A DNA stretch of 35,623 nucleotides from Rhodocyclaceae bacterium (GTDB taxonomy: Bacteria > Pseudomonadota > Gammaproteobacteria > Burkholderiales > Rhodocyclaceae). Positions within the stretch are counted from its first letter, which is position 1. Each line of letters starts with the position of its first letter. Under the pieces are notes generated by a model, which was not told the origin of the DNA, ran no database searches, and saw only the letters and a list, made by a program, of their open reading frames with translations. The stretch covers positions 1 to 35,623 of the forward strand of contig JAGRFZ010000143.1 of assembly GCA_020445785.1 (NCBI GenBank). Direction: 5' to 3'. Made by a program: the position numbers and the translations under genes. Below are positions 19 through 5,148 of the stretch, one piece after another.

Positions 19-1230
19 CTAGCCCTTGACGCATACCACCTGGCGCAGCGTATGCACCACCGCCACCAGCGAGCGCTGGGCGTGCATCACCGCGTCGATG
101 TCCTTGTAGGCCATCGGAATCTCGTCGATCACGTCCCTGTCCTTGCGGCACTCTACGTGGGCGGTGGCGCGTTCCTGGTCGGCCAGGGTGAAGCGGCGCT
201 TGGCCTCGTTGCGGCTCATCGTGCGGCCCGCGCCGTGACTGCAGGAACAGAAGGCATCCTCGTTGCCGAGGCCGCGCACGATGTAGCTCTTGGCGCCCAT
301 CGAGCCGGGGATGATGCCCAGTTCGCCCTTCCTTGCCGACACCGCGCCCTTTCGGGTCACCAGGAGTTCGGCGCCGAAGTGGGATTCGCGCTGTACGTAG
401 TTGTGATGGCAGTTCACCGCCTCTACGTCGGCCGCGAAGGGCGTGGCGATCGTCCGGCGGGCGGCGAGGATGACGTGGTGCATCATCACCGCGCGATTGC
501 GCCGGGCGTAGTCCTGCGCCCAGCCGACCGCTTCCACGTAGTCGTCGAAGTGCTCGCTGCCTTCCTCGAAATAGGCCAGATCACGGTCGGGCAACTGGAT
601 CATATGTCGCTCCATGTCCTTGCGGGCGATCTCGATGAAGTAGGTGCCGATGGCATTCCCCACCCCGCGCGAACCGGAATGCAGCATGAACCAGACCCGG
701 TCGGCCTCATCGAGGCAGACCTCGACGAAATGGTTGCCGGTGCCCAGGGTTCCCAGGTGCTTGTGGTGGTTGGTGTTCTGCAGCCGCGGGTATTTGTCGG
801 TGATGCGCCGGAATCCCGGCAGCAACGCCGCCCACATGGCGTCGACCGTCTCCGGCGGCTGCTCCCAGGCGCCCGGGTCGCGTTTGCCCGGACGGCGACC
901 GTGGGGCACGGCCTGCTCGATGGCGGTGCGCAAGGGATGCAGGTTGTCGGGCAGGTCGGCGGCGGTGAGGCTGGTGCGGGCGGCGATCATGCCGCAGCCG
1001 ATGTCCACCCCCACGGCCGCAGGGATGATGGCGCCCCGGGTCGGTATCACGCTGCCGATGGTCGAACCCTTGCCCAGATGCACGTCCGGCATCACGGCAA
1101 GGTGGCCGAAGACGAACGGCATCTTGGCCGTGTTCATCAACTGGCGGCGGGCCGCCTCTTCCACCGGCACGCCTTCGGTCCACATCTTGATGGGCTTTCC
1201 GCCTTCGACTTCGAGTACTTGGTAGTCCAT
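19..1230 (-). CDS. rtcB: RNA-splicing ligase RtcB
   Basis: GTP- and Mn2+-dependent RNA ligase that joins a 3'-phosphate or 2',3'-cyclic phosphate end to a 5'-OH, acting in repair of cleaved tRNA and rRNA. The protein is close to full length for the short bacterial RtcB type (403 aa here, about 408 in E. coli). Visible motifs include the metal-binding VGVDIGCGM, the LGTLGTGNHF block, HSGSRGVGN, CHHNYVQ, and SCSHGAGR near the C terminus, which holds the histidine that is guanylylated in characterised RtcB. I chose ATG at 1230 (MDYQVLEV) because it lines up with the E. coli start and follows GAAGGA; an in-frame TTG lies 5 codons upstream. It is the last gene seen in the sigma54-driven minus-strand unit that begins at the tRNA-like RNAs. 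Anything downstream of it, including a possible rtcA, is outside the window. Confidence 0.97.
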   Translation of the reverse strand: MDYQVLEVEGGKPIKMWTEGVPVEEAARRQLMNTAKMPFVFGHLAVMPDVHLGKGSTIGSVIPTRGAIIPAAVGVDIGCGMIAARTSLTAADLPDNLHPLRTAIEQAVPHGRRPGKRDPGAWEQPPETVDAMWAALLPGFRRITDKYPRLQNTNHHKHLGTLGTGNHFVEVCLDEADRVWFMLHSGSRGVGNAIGTYFIEIARKDMERHMIQLPDRDLAYFEEGSEHFDDYVEAVGWAQDYARRNRAVMMHHVILAARRTIATPFAADVEAVNCHHNYVQRESHFGAELLVTRKGAVSARKGELGIIPGSMGAKSYIVRGLGNEDAFCSCSHGAGRTMSRNEAKRRFTLADQERATAHVECRKDRDVIDEIPMAYKDIDAVMHAQRSLVAVVHTLRQVVCVKG

Positions 1231-1266
1231 TTCGTTGTCCTTCAACGTGGGGCCATCCCGACCCCG

Positions 1267-1306: not shown

Positions 1307-1663
1307 TCAGCGGCGAACGACGGTCTTGCCCAGCACACGGTCCGGATTCGCGCGTCGGGCGTTGGTGAACACCTTGCCCTGGGCGAGCTCGTACCACCAC
1401 TCCTGGCGCGCGGCGGTCCACACGCCTTTCGCACCGCAATCGATGCAGAAAAAATGCAGATCGCGGTAGTAGGCGCGAGTCACGAAATCGGGTTTGCCGT
1501 AGCTGTTGCGCGGGCGCAGCCGCGTGACGTCCATCGGCGCGGTGTGCGGTGGGCGCAGTTCGATCGCCTGCAACACAGCGGCAGCGCGGCGCTTCGCCTG
1601 CCGGCGCAGTCGGGCCGCCATGATATCGGCCCGGCGCTGCCTGCCACTCTTGAAGGCCTTCAT
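1307..1663 (-). CDS. Small zinc-ribbon domain protein
   Basis: A 118-aa basic protein of unknown function. The C-terminal half carries FFCIDCGAKGVWTAARQEWWYE, read as a split motif FFCIDCG then WTAARQEWWYE, followed by an RRANPDR segment. This pattern resembles the small bacterial family described as a probable zinc-ribbon domain, where a CxxC knuckle is followed by an aromatic-rich EQ/EW segment. Only the first CxxC pair is present; the second cysteine pair usual for that fold is missing (NARRANPDR in its place), so metal binding is uncertain. The start is ATG after GAGGAG. It sits between slipin and rtcB on the same strand, with a stem-loop in each flanking spacer, so it is probably co-transcribed. 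A nucleic-acid-binding role in RNA repair would fit the context but is inference. Confidence 0.75.
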   Translation of the reverse strand: MKAFKSGRQRRADIMAARLRRQAKRRAAAVLQAIELRPPHTAPMDVTRLRPRNSYGKPDFVTRAYYRDLHFFCIDCGAKGVWTAARQEWWYELAQGKVFTNARRANPDRVLGKTVVRR

Positions 1664-1730: not shown

Positions 1731-2870
1731 TCAGCCCGGTTTGATGCGAACCAGCCCGTTCAGCACCTGGTCGAGTCCGCCGACCACCGAGATGCGATCG
1801 ATCCGATCGGCCACGCGTTCCAGGGTTTCCAGCTCCTTCAGACGCAGTGCGGTCGGGTTGTCTTCCATCACCTTGGCGGTGTTGAGCAGCGACCGGGTGG
1901 CGGCGGTTTCCTCGCGGCGACGGATCACGTTGGCTTCGGCCGACTTCGATGCCTCCACCACCTGGGCGAGAATGGCCTTCATCTCACCCGGCAGGACGAT
2001 GTCCTTGATGCCGACGCCGCTCACTTCCATGCCGTAGCCCTCCAGTTTGTGCCGCACGTGGGCGCCTACCACCTCGTCGATCACCTGCTTGTTCTCCAGC
2101 AATTCGTCCAGTGATCGGGTTCCCACCGCCGCGCGCAGTCCGAACTGCAGTTCGCGATAGAGATGCTCGGCCGGCTTGCTCAAGGCTTCATGGGCCCGCA
2201 GCACATCGGTGTAGCGCCAGGTGGCGGCGAGGTTCATGCGCAGTCCGACCCGGTCGCGGGTCAGGATCTCCTGGCCGCTCACCTCCAGGTTCTGCAGGCG
2301 CGTATCCACCGGGTCCACCTGTACGTCGCGGTTGAAGCGCCAGAATGCGGCCAGGCCAGCCTGCAGCAGGCCTTGCACCTTGCCGTCGATCTTCAATACG
2401 CCCACGTGGTAGGTCGGCACCTGAACCATCAGCAGGCCCGCCAGGCCGGCCACGGCCCGGTTGCGCAAGGCCGGTTGGGCGAGCCGGGCCGCCAGTTGCG
2501 GCGCCACAGCCACGTCGACGGTCAGATCGATGCGCTCCAGGCGATGGGCCACCAGCCCCTTCCAGAAGAAGCGCCGCGCGCCCGGGGGCAGGAGCTCGAC
2601 CAGCACCCCATTCTCGAAGCGCAGACCGGCCTCGTCCTCGGTGAGCTCCATGCGCTCGAAGTGCTCGTCTACGAGCGCAGGGGCATGGCGGAGGAGGTAG
2701 TCCACCAGGTTGCTGTCGTTCATCGCCGCATCGAGCTTCCAGACCTGCAGCACCAGCCGGCCGAACGGATCGAAAAAACAATGGCGTCCGGCGCCGAGGA
2801 GGCAGTCGAAGTCGCCATCCCGCAGCAGCACCCCACATTCGTTCTTCTTCACCACCAAGCGCTTCAACAT
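1731..2870 (-). CDS. Slipin-family SPFH/band 7 protein
   Basis: A 379-aa SPFH (stomatin/prohibitin) family protein. The open frame runs upstream through the tRNA-like region to 3551, but the real start is ATG at 2870 (MLKRLVVKKNE), preceded by AAGGAG. The N-terminal half starts with a ligand-like segment (ECGVLLRDGDFDCLLGAG) also seen in slipins linked to rtcB. The SPFH core spans roughly residues 150-310, with VDTRLQNLEVSGQEILTRD and VGIKDIVLPGEMK as typical blocks, followed by a charged helical C terminus (EASKSAEANVIRRREETAA) suited to oligomer formation. I see no transmembrane helix, unlike classical stomatins, so it is cytosolic or peripheral. It is the first protein gene after the tRNA-like RNAs in the sigma54 unit. 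Its biochemical role in RNA repair is unknown. Confidence 0.9.
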   Translation of the reverse strand: MLKRLVVKKNECGVLLRDGDFDCLLGAGRHCFFDPFGRLVLQVWKLDAAMNDSNLVDYLLRHAPALVDEHFERMELTEDEAGLRFENGVLVELLPPGARRFFWKGLVAHRLERIDLTVDVAVAPQLAARLAQPALRNRAVAGLAGLLMVQVPTYHVGVLKIDGKVQGLLQAGLAAFWRFNRDVQVDPVDTRLQNLEVSGQEILTRDRVGLRMNLAATWRYTDVLRAHEALSKPAEHLYRELQFGLRAAVGTRSLDELLENKQVIDEVVGAHVRHKLEGYGMEVSGVGIKDIVLPGEMKAILAQVVEASKSAEANVIRRREETAATRSLLNTAKVMEDNPTALRLKELETLERVADRIDRISVVGGLDQVLNGLVRIKPG

Positions 2871-3122
2871 CTCGATTCTCCTTGTTCTTGCCGACCGGTC
2901 GCCGGCCCGGCGGGCCGCCCGTTCGGCGCGGACGGGGGGCGGGCGGCGGGCCGGAGGAGGCGGGTGAGTGCACATGCCGCAGCGCGTCACCGAACCGTCC
3001 CCGACCGCGCCGGCCCACCCTGCCGCCTGCGCGGGCCGGGGGCCGAGCGGGCCGGCGGCGGGTGCTTGCGCAATCCGCAGCCGACGGGTGTTGCCGTTTG
3101 CATAACTGTCGTGTGAGGACAG
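2871..3122 (-). other. GC-rich spacer between tRNA-like RNA and slipin
   Basis: About 250 bases that would be transcribed as leader between the second tRNA-like element and the slipin start. Apart from the slipin ribosome binding site next to 2870, I find no gene here. The part at 2890-3060 is extremely GC-rich with short CCGG/GGCC inverted repeats. No T-rich terminator separates the RNA elements from slipin, which supports one transcript that is later processed. Confidence 0.5.
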
Positions 3123-3200
3123 GTTTGGAGCGGGAGTCGAACCCGCGACCGACCGAACGGGCTTGGCCCGCGCGGTTGCTCTACCCAATTGAGCTATCCA
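3123..3200 (-). ncRNA. tRNA-like RNA A: canonical D- and T-arms, no anticodon loop
   Basis: Read on the minus strand, TGGA (3200-3197) pairs with TCCA (3129-3126) as a short 4-bp acceptor remnant. TA at 3196-3195 leads into a canonical D-arm, GCTC/GAGC (3194-3191 with 3181-3178), with a 9-nt loop containing GGG. The T-arm is canonical: GCGGG, TTCGACT, CCCGC (3146-3130). Where the 17-nt anticodon arm should be there is a 25-nt hairpin, 3176-3166 with 3162-3152, eleven positions with one mismatch, one wobble and a CAA triloop. Without a 7-nt anticodon loop or a full acceptor stem it cannot decode. It directly follows RNA B. The Salmonella RtcR operon encodes Y RNAs with a tRNA-mimicking module (YrlA); a similar role is inferred here. 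A decayed tRNA gene is the alternative. Confidence 0.75.
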
Positions 3201-3201
3201 G

Positions 3202-3251
3202 TGGTTTGCGGCCCGGGAATCGAACCCGGATGGACTCACCAAAGTCCGCAA
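3202..3251 (-). ncRNA. tRNA-like RNA B: CCA-ended minimal tRNA without anticodon arm
   Basis: A 50-nt element. TTGCGG (3251-3246) pairs with CCGCAA (3211-3206), giving a 6-bp acceptor stem. It is followed by a discriminator A and an encoded CCA (3204-3202). The T-arm is canonical: CCGGG, TTCGATT, CCCGG (3229-3213). Between acceptor and T-arm only a tiny hairpin (ACT/AGT, loop TTGGTG) remains, which could stand in for a D-arm; there is no anticodon arm. The acceptor plus T-arm is the minihelix recognised by RNase P, CCA-adding enzyme and EF-Tu in ordinary tRNAs, so processing by tRNA-maturation enzymes is plausible. It lies about 115 bases downstream of the predicted sigma54 start site and ends one base before RNA A begins. 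Function unknown. Confidence 0.7.
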
Positions 3252-3366
3252 CGCGACCGAAATCCCTGCGGCGGCATGCGCGGCGACGACAGACCGGGAT
3301 CCGGTTGCCGCGCACCGGCGGGGCTGGGAACCCCGGCCCGTGGGCCATTGCAGCGAGCTGCGGTCG
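3252..3366 (-). other. Predicted 5' leader of the rtcB operon with a hairpin
   Basis: Region between the predicted sigma54 start site (about 3366) and the first tRNA-like element. It contains a 5-bp hairpin CGGGG/CCCCG (3335-3331 with 3323-3319) with 7-nt loop TTCCCAG, which has T-arm dimensions but lacks the T-loop consensus. I see no open frame with a ribosome binding site. A processing site is expected near 3252 if RNase P makes the 5' end of RNA B. Confidence 0.45.
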
Positions 3367-3376
3367 ATTTTGCCAT

Positions 3377-3392
3377 TGCGAATGGCGTGCCA
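3377..3392 (-). promoter_or_regulatory. sigma54 (-24/-12) promoter for the tRNA-like/slipin/rtcB unit
   Basis: The minus strand reads TGGCACGCCATTCGCA, against the sigma54 consensus TGGCACG-N4-TTGCW. The GG and GC doublets are exactly 10 bases apart, with a single change (TCGCA for TTGCA) in the -12 box. The predicted start is near 3366, so the transcript would begin ahead of both tRNA-like elements. rtcR, a sigma54 activator, starts 140 bases away on the other strand. RtcR upstream binding sites should lie between 3393 and about 3500; I could not identify them. Confidence 0.85.
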
Positions 3393-3531
3393 GCTCTGGC
3401 CGGCTGCGGAAAGCCTTTCGTAAGTCGTTGAACAAAATCGGGTTCGCCGATGGAAGTGAGGTTTGGCGCCAGGATCAAGATCGTGAAATACTAGAATCTG
3501 GGATATGAGACTAGCGGACAAGCTAATTTCC

Positions 3532-5148
3532 ATGCGCAAGACCGTCGCCATCGGCTTCCTCGGTACCCAACTCGACTACGGCGGTCGTGGCAGCCAGCGT
3601 TGGCAGAAGTGGCGGCCCACCGTCGGCCTGTGCCAACAGCAAGACCTCGTCGTGCATCGTCTGGAACTGCTGCATGACGCGCGCAGCCGCGGGCTGGCGG
3701 AGCGTGTGCAACTGGACATCCGGTCCGTCTCCCCGGAGACGGAGGTGCGCCGGGTGGCGGTCGAGCTGCGCGACCCGTGGGACTTCGAGGAGGTCTATAC
3801 GGCGCTCTTGGACTACGCGCGCGGCTACGCCTTCGATACCGAGACCGAGGACTACCTCATCCACATCACCACAGGTACCCACGTGGCGCAGATCTGCTGG
3901 TTCCTGCTGGCCGAGGCGCGCTATCTGCCGGCGCGTCTGGTGCAGACCTCGCCGCCGCGCAAGAAGGACGTGGCCAACAGCGTGGGCAGCTACGAGGTGA
4001 TCGACCTCGACCTCTCGCGCTACGACAAGATCGCCCAGCGCTTTCAGCGCGAACACGCCGACACGGTAAGCTTCCTCAAGTCCGGTATCGCCACCCGAAA
4101 CGCCGGCTTCAACCGCATGATCGAACAGATCGAGCGGGTGGCAGGGCGCACCCGGGCGCCGATCCTGCTGATCGGACCCACCGGGGCAGGCAAGTCCTTT
4201 CTGGCCCGTCGGGTCTTCGAATTGAAGCATCAGCGGCAACGGCTGGAAGGGCGCTTCGTGGAAGTGAACTGCGCGACGCTGCGGGGCGACGCCGCGATGT
4301 CGGCCCTGTTCGGCCACATCAGAGGCGCCTTCACCGGTGCCCAGCGCGAGCGTGCCGGCCTGCTGCGGGCGGCGGATGGCGGCGTGTTGTTTCTCGACGA
4401 GATCGGTGAATTGGGCCTGGACGAGCAGGCCATGTTGCTCAAGGCGATCGAGGAAAAGCGCTTCTTTCCCTTCGGCAGCGACAAGGAGATCGGCAGCGAC
4501 TTTCAGCTCATCGCGGGCACCAACCGCGACCTACGCCAGTGGGTCGTGGCGGGCCGCTTCCGCGAAGATCTGCTGGCGCGCATCAATCTATGGACCTTCG
4601 AGTTGCCGGGACTTGCCGGTCGCCGTGAGGACATCGAGCCCAATCTGGACTTCGAATTGGAGTGTCATGCCCGGGAGCACGGCGAGCAGGTGCGCTTCAA
4701 TGTCGAGGCGCGGCGTCGCTACCTGGACTTCGCCGGCTCGGCGGAGGCGCGCTGGTCCGGCAACTTTCGCGAGCTCTCGGCGTCGCTGACGCGAATGGCG
4801 ACCCTGGCCGATGCCGGGCGAATCCGGGAAGATCAGGTGACGGAGGAAATCGAACGCCTGCGACGCAGTTGGTCGGCTGCCGTCCCTGTCGACGCGGCGC
4901 GCCAGGTATTGGGCGATGACGCCGATACCCTGGACCTCTTCGACCGCTGCCAGCTCAACACCGTGATCGAAACCTGCCGCCGCGCCATCAGCCTGTCGGA
5001 TGCCGGCCGCAAGCTCTTCGCCCAATCCCGCCGGAGCCGCAAGCAACCCAACGATGCCGACCGCCTTCGCAAGTATCTGGCCCGCTTCGGGCTCGAGTGG
5101 GGACGGGTCTCTCAGGTGGCACCGGAACCCGTCCTGCACACGGACTGA
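3532..5148 (+). CDS. rtcR: sigma54-dependent RNA-repair operon activator RtcR
   Basis: A 538-aa bacterial enhancer-binding protein. Residues 1 to about 185 form the RtcR sensor domain, a divergent CARF-like fold with the HITTGTH motif at 111-117. The AAA+ domain follows, with Walker A GPTGAGKS at 215-222, the sigma54-contacting GAFTGA loop at 265-270 and Walker B GGVLFLDEIGE at 283-293. The C terminus (NDADRLRKYLARFGLEW) is the expected DNA-binding part. I chose ATG 3532 (MRKTVAIGF) because it matches the E. coli RtcR N terminus; an in-frame ATG at 3505 adds nine unlike residues. In Salmonella, RtcR is activated by 5' tRNA fragments ending in 2',3'-cyclic phosphate. Here it is divergent from a sigma54 promoter that drives tRNA-like RNAs, slipin, zinc ribbon and rtcB, its evident target. 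Confidence 0.97.
   Translation: MRKTVAIGFLGTQLDYGGRGSQRWQKWRPTVGLCQQQDLVVHRLELLHDARSRGLAERVQLDIRSVSPETEVRRVAVELRDPWDFEEVYTALLDYARGYAFDTETEDYLIHITTGTHVAQICWFLLAEARYLPARLVQTSPPRKKDVANSVGSYEVIDLDLSRYDKIAQRFQREHADTVSFLKSGIATRNAGFNRMIEQIERVAGRTRAPILLIGPTGAGKSFLARRVFELKHQRQRLEGRFVEVNCATLRGDAAMSALFGHIRGAFTGAQRERAGLLRAADGGVLFLDEIGELGLDEQAMLLKAIEEKRFFPFGSDKEIGSDFQLIAGTNRDLRQWVVAGRFREDLLARINLWTFELPGLAGRREDIEPNLDFELECHAREHGEQVRFNVEARRRYLDFAGSAEARWSGNFRELSASLTRMATLADAGRIREDQVTEEIERLRRSWSAAVPVDAARQVLGDDADTLDLFDRCQLNTVIETCRRAISLSDAGRKLFAQSRRSRKQPNDADRLRKYLARFGLEWGRVSQVAPEPVLHTD

What the first reader, a model, noticed from the sequence alone, without database searches (positions are those of the whole stretch)
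3123..3251. Two adjacent tRNA-mimic RNAs inside an RtcR-controlled RNA-repair operon
Between a sigma54 promoter and the slipin-zinc ribbon-rtcB genes are two elements with canonical T-arms (TTCGATT and TTCGACT loops on 5-bp GC stems), on the operon strand. Neither can be a working tRNA. Established: RtcR operons in Salmonella contain Y RNA genes with a tRNA-mimicking module, and RtcR responds to 5' tRNA fragments with cyclic phosphate ends. Inference: these RNAs could be substrates, scaffolds or decoys for RtcB/slipin, or feed back on RtcR. Having two structurally different mimics abutting each other, with no Rsr (Ro) gene in view, makes this a different arrangement from the Salmonella rsr-yrlBA-rtcBA operon.
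Basis: partly seen in the sequence, partly recalled or inferred. Interest (0 to 1): 0.88.

Follow-up and report, generated by a model that had tools for sequence, protein, structure and literature searches.

The report
Paired tRNA-mimic RNAs beside slipin gene
Ahead of an RNA-repair gene cluster lie two linked RNAs that are shaped like transfer RNAs but seem unable to read the genetic code; similar pairs recur beside the same membrane-scaffold-type protein gene in many bacteria, which points to an unstudied RNA partner for that protein.

Summary
On the operon (minus) strand lie a reduced tRNA-like minihelix ending in CCA (E1, 3251-3202) and an abutting tRNA-like fold (E2, 3203-3123) whose anticodon arm is replaced by a 25-nt hairpin. 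Both sit in a roughly 500-nt structured leader between a sigma54 site and slipin-zinc finger-rtcB, opposite rtcR. Protein-first sampling finds a T-arm pair in 33 of 41 loci of this slipin family across the phylum, against 0 of 29 other Band-7 genes. An RNA-first search of 369 genomes puts all seven top hits beside a slipin. RtcR and RtcB are optional; slipin, an SPFH protein with N-terminal beta repeats, is the constant partner. Best reading: a non-decoding tandem tRNA mimic that works with this slipin in tRNA-damage responses, parallel to YrlA, which sits in the equivalent place in some slipin-less rtcR operons. Function in trans is inferred, not shown; a cis-acting leader is the main rival.

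The parts
3377..3392 (-). sigma54 (-24/-12) promoter motif TGGCACGCCATTCGCA ahead of the leader
   Evidence: a strict pattern of this kind precedes the leader in 26 of 50 representative loci
3269..3345 (-). 5' structured leader domain (GGGG..CCCC and GGTGCGC..GCGCATGCC helices), conserved, no accepted Rfam match; boundaries approximate
   Evidence: RNAalifold on 26 leaders, with pairs changed on both sides; Rfam
3202..3251 (-). E1: tRNA-like minihelix: acceptor-type stem (6 of 7 bp), one hairpin, T-arm 3229-3213, then A and CCA
3123..3203 (-). E2: tRNA-like fold: 4-bp acceptor TGGA/TCCA, D-arm 3194-3178, a 25-nt hairpin (3176-3152) in the anticodon-arm position, T-arm 3146-3130
   Evidence: Rfam tRNA 36.0 bits; covariation over 50 sequences
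3106..3122 (-). hairpin CTGTC-CTCACAC-GACAG directly after E2, conserved with compensatory changes
2880..3094 (-). 3' leader domain up to the slipin start; long-range pairs predicted, many of them poorly supported; boundaries approximate
1731..2870 (-). slipin (SPFH/Band 7) with beta repeats before the SPFH core; the constant partner of the RNA pair
   Evidence: Pfam PF01145; model and fold searches
1307..1663 (-). zinc-finger protein (zf_Tbcl)
19..1245 (-). rtcB RNA ligase; the contig ends just beyond it
3505..5148 (+). rtcR, divergent sigma54 activator
   Evidence: NCBIfam NF038308, 845.1 bits against a cut-off of 650

Best explanation
E1 and E2 are a conserved tandem of non-decoding tRNA mimics, transcribed from the RtcR-sigma54 promoter as part of a structured leader. 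Shown by comparison: the pair exists, is under selection for tRNA shape but not for one anticodon, and is genetically tied to one family of repeat-bearing SPFH proteins (slipin). Inferred: after tRNA damage activates RtcR, the RNA is made together with slipin and RtcB, and acts in trans as a tRNA-shaped partner of the slipin, engaging enzymes that recognise tRNA (as a decoy for anticodon nucleases, or as a tether or scaffold for repair factors). It would fill with slipin the role that YrlA fills with Rsr in sister rtcR operons. My split: conserved slipin-linked tRNA mimic about 0.95; trans-acting ribonucleoprotein with slipin about 0.5; decoy in the strict sense about 0.25. The confidence given is for the trans-acting reading.
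For: Pair in 68 of 77 slipin loci, spacing 68-78 nt. Covariation on a sequence-only alignment of 50 representatives: 141 cells changed on both sides against 44.8 (sd 6.9) in shuffles; all five anticodon-stem pairs compensated. Of 76 E2s, 34 lack a 17-nt anticodon arm, with 21 GNRA and 4 UUCG loops; the 18 canonical-looking loops carry 11 different anticodons. RNA-first: all 7 hits of 77 bits or more in 369 genomes, the window included, lie beside a slipin. Protein-first: T-arm pair in 16 of 22 and 17 of 19 loci, against 0 of 29 other Band-7 genes (first run with four wrong strands). YrlA-like RNAs lie between rtcR and rtcB in four slipin-less rtcR loci. Ordinary tRNA arrays lie upstream in several slipin loci without a detected rtcR. 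P. aeruginosa PA4581.1, annotated as a tRNA gene, is expressed (PMC8743555, passage); its place between rtcR and slipin is inferred from its number.
Against: No binding, expression or processing data for this locus. The pair sits just upstream of slipin wherever found, which also fits a cis-acting leader. Three Pseudomonas loci (L083, L085, L089) keep rtcR, slipin, rtcB and recognisable flanking leader blocks but have no T-arm; six more of the 77 have only the second T-arm. In the protein-first samples 8 of 41 loci lack a pair. Of 76 E2s, 18 keep a canonical-looking anticodon loop, and ARAGORN calls E2 a tRNA in many loci.
Confidence: 0.5

Rival explanations
1. Cis-acting processing leader: the tRNA-like folds recruit RNase P (E1 resembles a minimal acceptor/T-arm substrate with CCA; recalled knowledge of such substrates) and perhaps RNase Z, cutting the transcript so that the slipin-rtcB mRNA starts at a protected, structured end.
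For: Same strand, upstream of slipin in the loci read. E1 has 6-7 of 7 acceptor pairs in 55 of 70 cases and CCA in the exact tRNA register in 22 of 70. Leader structured along its length.
Against: Processing should not need E2's D-arm and anticodon arm, yet the anticodon stem is kept by compensatory change. In three loci slipin remains without the folds.
Confidence: 0.25
2. Cis-acting sensor or autoregulator: the mimics bind RtcB, slipin or another tRNA-binding protein, so that free protein represses and damaged tRNA relieves the operon.
For: Leader position and flanking domains; a similar leader block with one T-like arm ahead of slipin-RlaP in E. coli.
Against: No switch (terminator or hidden ribosome site) was looked for or established; tandem copies without a constant anticodon do not resemble a tRNA sensor that I know of.
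Confidence: 0.15
3. Genuine emergency tRNAs that decode after tRNA cleavage.
For: Several slipin loci without a detected rtcR follow ordinary tRNA genes, 17 in L105; 18 of 76 E2s have a canonical-looking loop.
Against: 34 of 76 lack a 17-nt anticodon arm; anticodons differ between relatives; acceptor positions 1, 2 and 3 are unpaired in 38, 25 and 19 of 50.
Confidence: 0.03
4. Decaying tRNA genes or an integration scar.
For: tRNA fragments at genomic junctions are common (general knowledge).
Against: Strong covariation and linkage to one protein family across a phylum.
Confidence: 0.02

Closest known systems
YrlA Y RNA with Rsr (Ro60) in Salmonella-type rtc operons (Rfam RF02553)
   Same: tRNA-mimicking RNA in an RtcR-controlled RNA-repair operon, between rtcR and rtcB
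   Different: YrlA is permuted (T-arm, closed hairpin, D-arm; Rfam consensus) on a Y stem and goes with Rsr. Here the order is normal, there are two units, slipin is the partner, no Rsr was found, and the YrlA score is 25.9 against a gathering score of 69.
tRNA (Rfam RF00005)
   Same: D-arm, T-arm and usual core residues, cloverleaf order in E2
   Different: Short acceptor, anticodon arm replaced or drifting, no CCA at the usual place on E2; E1 in the window has only one side arm.
Anabaena TrcR regulon (26-gene trn operon, rtcB, slipin)
   Same: tRNA operon, rtcB and a slipin gene answer to one regulator of translational stress (PMC10272220, passages)
   Different: Genes are dispersed and under a repressor; no mimic pair in the passages seen.
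Vault (major vault protein, vault RNA, TROVE-bearing TEP1; RNA and TEP1 recalled)
   Same: Beta repeats, then SPFH-like domain, then long helix; Foldseek aligns MVP chains over the whole model (E 2.2e-11)

Membership tests
tRNA | 17-nt anticodon arm with a 7-nt loop | tested here: not met
   Window E2 has a 25-nt hairpin there; 34 of 76 E2s differ from 17 nt, 42 have 17 nt
tRNA | 7-bp acceptor stem followed by N73-CCA on a complete cloverleaf | tested here: not met
   E2: 4 bp in the window, no CCA in register. E1: 6 of 7 bp and CCA, but only one side arm
tRNA | D-arm, T-arm and core residues | tested here: met
   E2 alignment: T8, A14, a D-loop G and T-loop TTC..A invariant or nearly so
YrlA (RF02553) | Score at or above Rfam's gathering threshold over the whole model | tested here: not met
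   25.9 bits, model positions 30-81 only, spanning the T-arm of E1 and the D-arm of E2; no match at E 0.001 in the genome, 150 of 590 candidates scored
YrlA / bacterial Y RNA | Rsr (TROVE) partner encoded | tested here: not met
   0 matches in G000, assembly 89% complete
RtcR-regulated RNA-repair operon | rtcR equivalog, divergent sigma54 promoter, rtcB | tested here: met
RtcR-regulated RNA-repair operon | rtcA in the operon | tested here: inconclusive
   The contig ends after rtcB; RTC-family matches lie on contig C217, in three pieces
SPFH / stomatin family | SPFH core fold | tested here: met
Major vault protein | MVP repeats before an SPFH-like shoulder and cap helix | tested here: inconclusive

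The most novel reading that the evidence does not exclude
A bacterial SPFH-repeat protein with vault-like domain order forms a cage or ring that carries a dedicated, anticodon-drifted twin-tRNA RNA, as a phylum-wide response to tRNA damage. The T-arm-to-D-arm junction of such tandem units is the kind of precursor from which permuted YrlA RNAs could arise, so vault-like RNA and Y RNA systems would meet in one operon family.
Probability: 0.15. Interest if true: 0.95.

Novelty: new variant of a known kind. Interest (0 to 1): 0.85.

Why it matters
It adds a widespread RNA to bacterial RNA repair and gives this slipin, whose place in rtc operons the papers seen here leave unexplained, a likely molecular partner. 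It links three things that meet at the same kind of locus (tRNA arrays, tRNA mimics, RNA ligase), and it suggests that tRNA genes annotated there, such as PA4581.1 in Pseudomonas aeruginosa, may not be working tRNAs.

Tried and rejected
Single-sequence folding was too weak to decide. The YrlA match was considered as membership and rejected on score and on absence of Rsr; I expect that tandem ordinary tRNAs would give a similar partial match (not tested). Model R1 does not separate mimics from ordinary tandem tRNAs below about 77 bits: every one of the 369 genomes has matches, and the next hit, 75.6 bits, is ordinary tRNA genes; so protein-first sampling was added. The vault reading was tested with the N-terminal repeats alone: no Foldseek match at E 0.001 and the best VIA rows are SPFH proteins, so it is kept only as the bold case. 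No phage record matched the slipin of L107. PADLOC lists RtcR models only, for the four operon proteins. Papers: the ten searches showed no title, abstract start or count pointing to a slipin-linked tRNA-like RNA, and the passages opened mention none; two papers recalled as most relevant are not held, so earlier description cannot be excluded. In one search the automatic choice of the anticodon stem misread some arms (L046, L069, L081) and gave none for the window; the census uses fixed positions. The first Band-7 control (0 of 28) used the wrong strand for L225, L240, L243 and L244; it was rerun on the strands: 0 of 29, one of them (L227) with only 265 nt upstream; L239 and L244 match the slipin profile weakly. 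Alignment A5 was made and not used.

Full report
WHAT IS THERE. The window is a whole contig of a 4.58 Mb assembly. On the minus strand run slipin (1731-2870), a zinc-finger gene (1307-1663) and rtcB (19-1245, next to the contig end); rtcR (3505-5148) is divergent. The gap of about 640 nt holds a sigma54 site (3392-3377), then two abutting tRNA-like elements. E1 (3251-3202) has an acceptor-type stem, one hairpin and a T-arm, followed by A and CCA. E2 (3203-3123) has a 4-bp acceptor, D-arm and T-arm and, in place of the anticodon arm, a 25-nt hairpin. Rfam's tRNA model gives 36.0 bits for E2; the YrlA model gives a partial 25.9 bits across the T-arm of E1 and the D-arm of E2. ARAGORN finds nothing, and the fast whole-window Rfam scan lists nothing. 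E2 is the weakest of 35 tRNA-model hits in the genome.

RELATIVES WITH RTCR. Among 200 related genomes I count 18 with a clear rtcR orthologue (57% identity or more), the window's included. Flanks of the other 17 were fetched. Slipin is next to rtcR or rtcB in 7 of the 17 (L031, L032, L034, L040, L041, L046, L047), and each of the seven has two T-arms between the preceding gene and slipin; in L046 and L047 the order is rtcB, RNAs, slipin. Four slipin-less loci (L033, L036, L037, L044) carry YrlA-like RNAs instead, nine in L036 and five in L033; an Rsr gene was confirmed by Pfam in L033 and L036 and not sought in the other two. In the remaining six (L035, L038, L039, L042, L043, L045) neither was found in the stretch fetched; L042 is cut by a contig end. 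In this small sample slipin with the tRNA-like pair, and YrlA, do not occur together.

SLIPIN LOCI AT LARGE. rtcR was seen in 57 of the 80 (some of the others are short). Three were set aside as cut near slipin: L066 and L073 (under 50 nt upstream) and L048 (about 320 nt upstream, no T-arm; ambiguous). Of the other 77, 68 have a pair of T-arms on the sense strand, 68-78 nt apart; 6 have only the second (L072, L079, L087, L090, L106, L116; L106 has under 400 nt upstream); 3 have none (L083, L085, L089). Controls: pair in 1 of 77 antisense strands and 1 of 1540 dinucleotide shuffles.

COVARIATION. E2s (77, window included) were thinned to 50 at 90% identity and aligned by sequence alone. Under the tRNA cloverleaf 89.5% of cells pair; 141 cells changed on both sides against 44.8 (sd 6.9) in shuffles, and slid structures give at most 33. 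All five anticodon-stem pairs are compensated. Acceptor positions 1, 2 and 3 are unpaired in 38, 25 and 19 of 50. A 41-sequence alignment from the first T-arm through E2 gives 122 against 28.1. RNAalifold unaided finds the same four helices, the acceptor cut to three pairs. The shuffle control does not correct for relatedness; the slid control does so in part. For E1, 55 of 70 cases have 6-7 of 7 acceptor pairs at the best of 15 offsets, against 13 of 70 with the 3' strand shuffled; CCA falls in the exact tRNA register in 22 of 70.

NOT DECODING. Of 76 E2s (one duplicate dropped), 33 have a 14-16 nt anticodon arm, 1 (the window) 25 nt, and 42 the standard 17 nt. Among the shorter ones 21 loops are GNRA and 4 UUCG. 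Of the 42, 14 lack U33, 10 have U33 without a purine at 37, and 18 have both, with 11 different anticodons. The stem is kept and the loop drifts: selection acts on shape rather than on one anticodon. The 18 canonical-looking loops are the evidence against this for those members.

THE PARTNER IS SLIPIN. RNA first: a covariance model of the tandem was run on 369 genomes of the class. All seven hits of 77 bits or more, the window included, have a slipin beside them, the other six by tblastn 33-51% identical to ours; an eighth (L144, 74.2 bits) does too; the remaining 22 of the 30 loci fetched hold ARAGORN tRNA genes and no slipin match. Protein first: a profile of the slipin N-terminus matches in 22 of 369 class genomes, and 16 of the 22 loci have a T-arm pair (60-90 nt apart) within 750 nt upstream. 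Misses: L180, L187 and L188 have one T-arm, L182 has T-arms at other spacings, L184 a doubtful one, L189 none. In 398 phylum genomes 23 match, 19 of them new; 17 of the 19 loci have a pair (L197 has one good T-arm, L207 only 103 nt upstream). They include 8 genomes outside the class. Together 33 of 41. In 16 of these genomes, 0 of 29 other Band-7 genes have such a pair or any GG-type T-arm. The profile was built largely from slipins that have the pair, so close kin are favoured. rtcB often follows but not always: in 10 downstream proteins from 9 of 15 such loci Pfam finds RtcB three times, RlaP once, unrelated families three times and nothing three times; L163, L165 and L166 have no rtcB in the stretch.

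ARRAYS. Several slipin loci in which no rtcR was detected stand after ordinary tRNA genes: 17 in L105, 9 in L108, 8 in L122, 5 in L120, E2 not counted; L125 has 11 and also rtcR. In Anabaena a tRNA operon, rtcB and a slipin gene answer to the repressor TrcR (PMC10272220, passages).

LEADER. On 26 leaders with a strict sigma54 match, RNAalifold gives a 5' domain, E1's T-arm, E2, a following hairpin and a long 3' domain; several helices show compensatory changes, part of the 3' domain is poorly supported. The three Pseudomonas loci without mimics keep blocks recognisable by eye on both sides.

EXPRESSION. In P. aeruginosa rtcB (PA4583) shares an operon with rtcA, PA4582 and PA4584, with rtcR adjacent and opposite (PMC8619066, passages), and an SPFH gene lies in the rtc locus of strain PA14 (PMC13086221, passage). 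PA4581.1, called a tRNA gene, is one of two genes singled out among those with the highest expression increase in a late cystic fibrosis isolate, significance unknown to the authors (PMC8743555, passage). That it lies between rtcR and PA4582 is inferred from its number; the PA7 locus L072 has E2, without E1, at that place.

MECHANISM. From Hughes and others 2020 (PMC7790460; title, abstract start and passages seen): damaged tRNAs regulate the RtcR operon; YrlA contains a tRNA-like domain, is not cut by the nuclease studied, and was suggested as a competitive inhibitor. Inferred here: the twin mimics serve with slipin in the same kind of response, as decoy or scaffold. The cis-leader reading stays open because position never separated the RNA from slipin in the loci read.

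VERDICT. A real, conserved, widespread tandem tRNA mimic; a new variant of the tRNA-mimic RNA kind rather than a YrlA or a tRNA. The literature library is partial, so novelty is relative to the ten searches named under Tried and rejected.

Noticed in passing
L036:5165-6937 (-), L033:5004-6054 (+): Nine and five YrlA-like RNAs between rsr and rtcB in rtcR operons; 3 of the 14 reach Rfam's gathering score.
   Followed up: partly
L105, L108, L116, L120, L122, L125: Arrays of ordinary tRNA genes upstream of slipin-rtcB units, all but L125 without a detected rtcR: possible replacement-tRNA operons.
   Followed up: partly
L167:2170-5023: Sixteen tRNA genes directly followed by rtcB; no slipin match in the stretch.
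   Followed up: no
L128:4690-6916: E. coli slipin plus RlaP behind a sigma54-like site, with a similar leader block and one T-like arm read by eye; 1621 of 5426 E. coli genomes hold at least 80% of the slipin query stretch.
   Followed up: partly
L083, L085, L089: Pseudomonas leaders that keep flanking blocks but have no T-arm: look like natural deletions of both mimics.
   Followed up: no
window 3345-3269 (-): Conserved 5' leader domain of unknown type upstream of the mimics, without an accepted Rfam match.
   Followed up: partly
L163:6069-6290 (-), L164:4669-4883 (+): Three tRNA-like elements in a row upstream of slipin; the L163 slipin frame is longer (531 aa) and matches the N-terminal profile twice.
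   Followed up: no
G000 contig C217:9655-10591: RNA cyclase (RTC family) matches in three pieces, away from this operon in the assembly.
   Followed up: no
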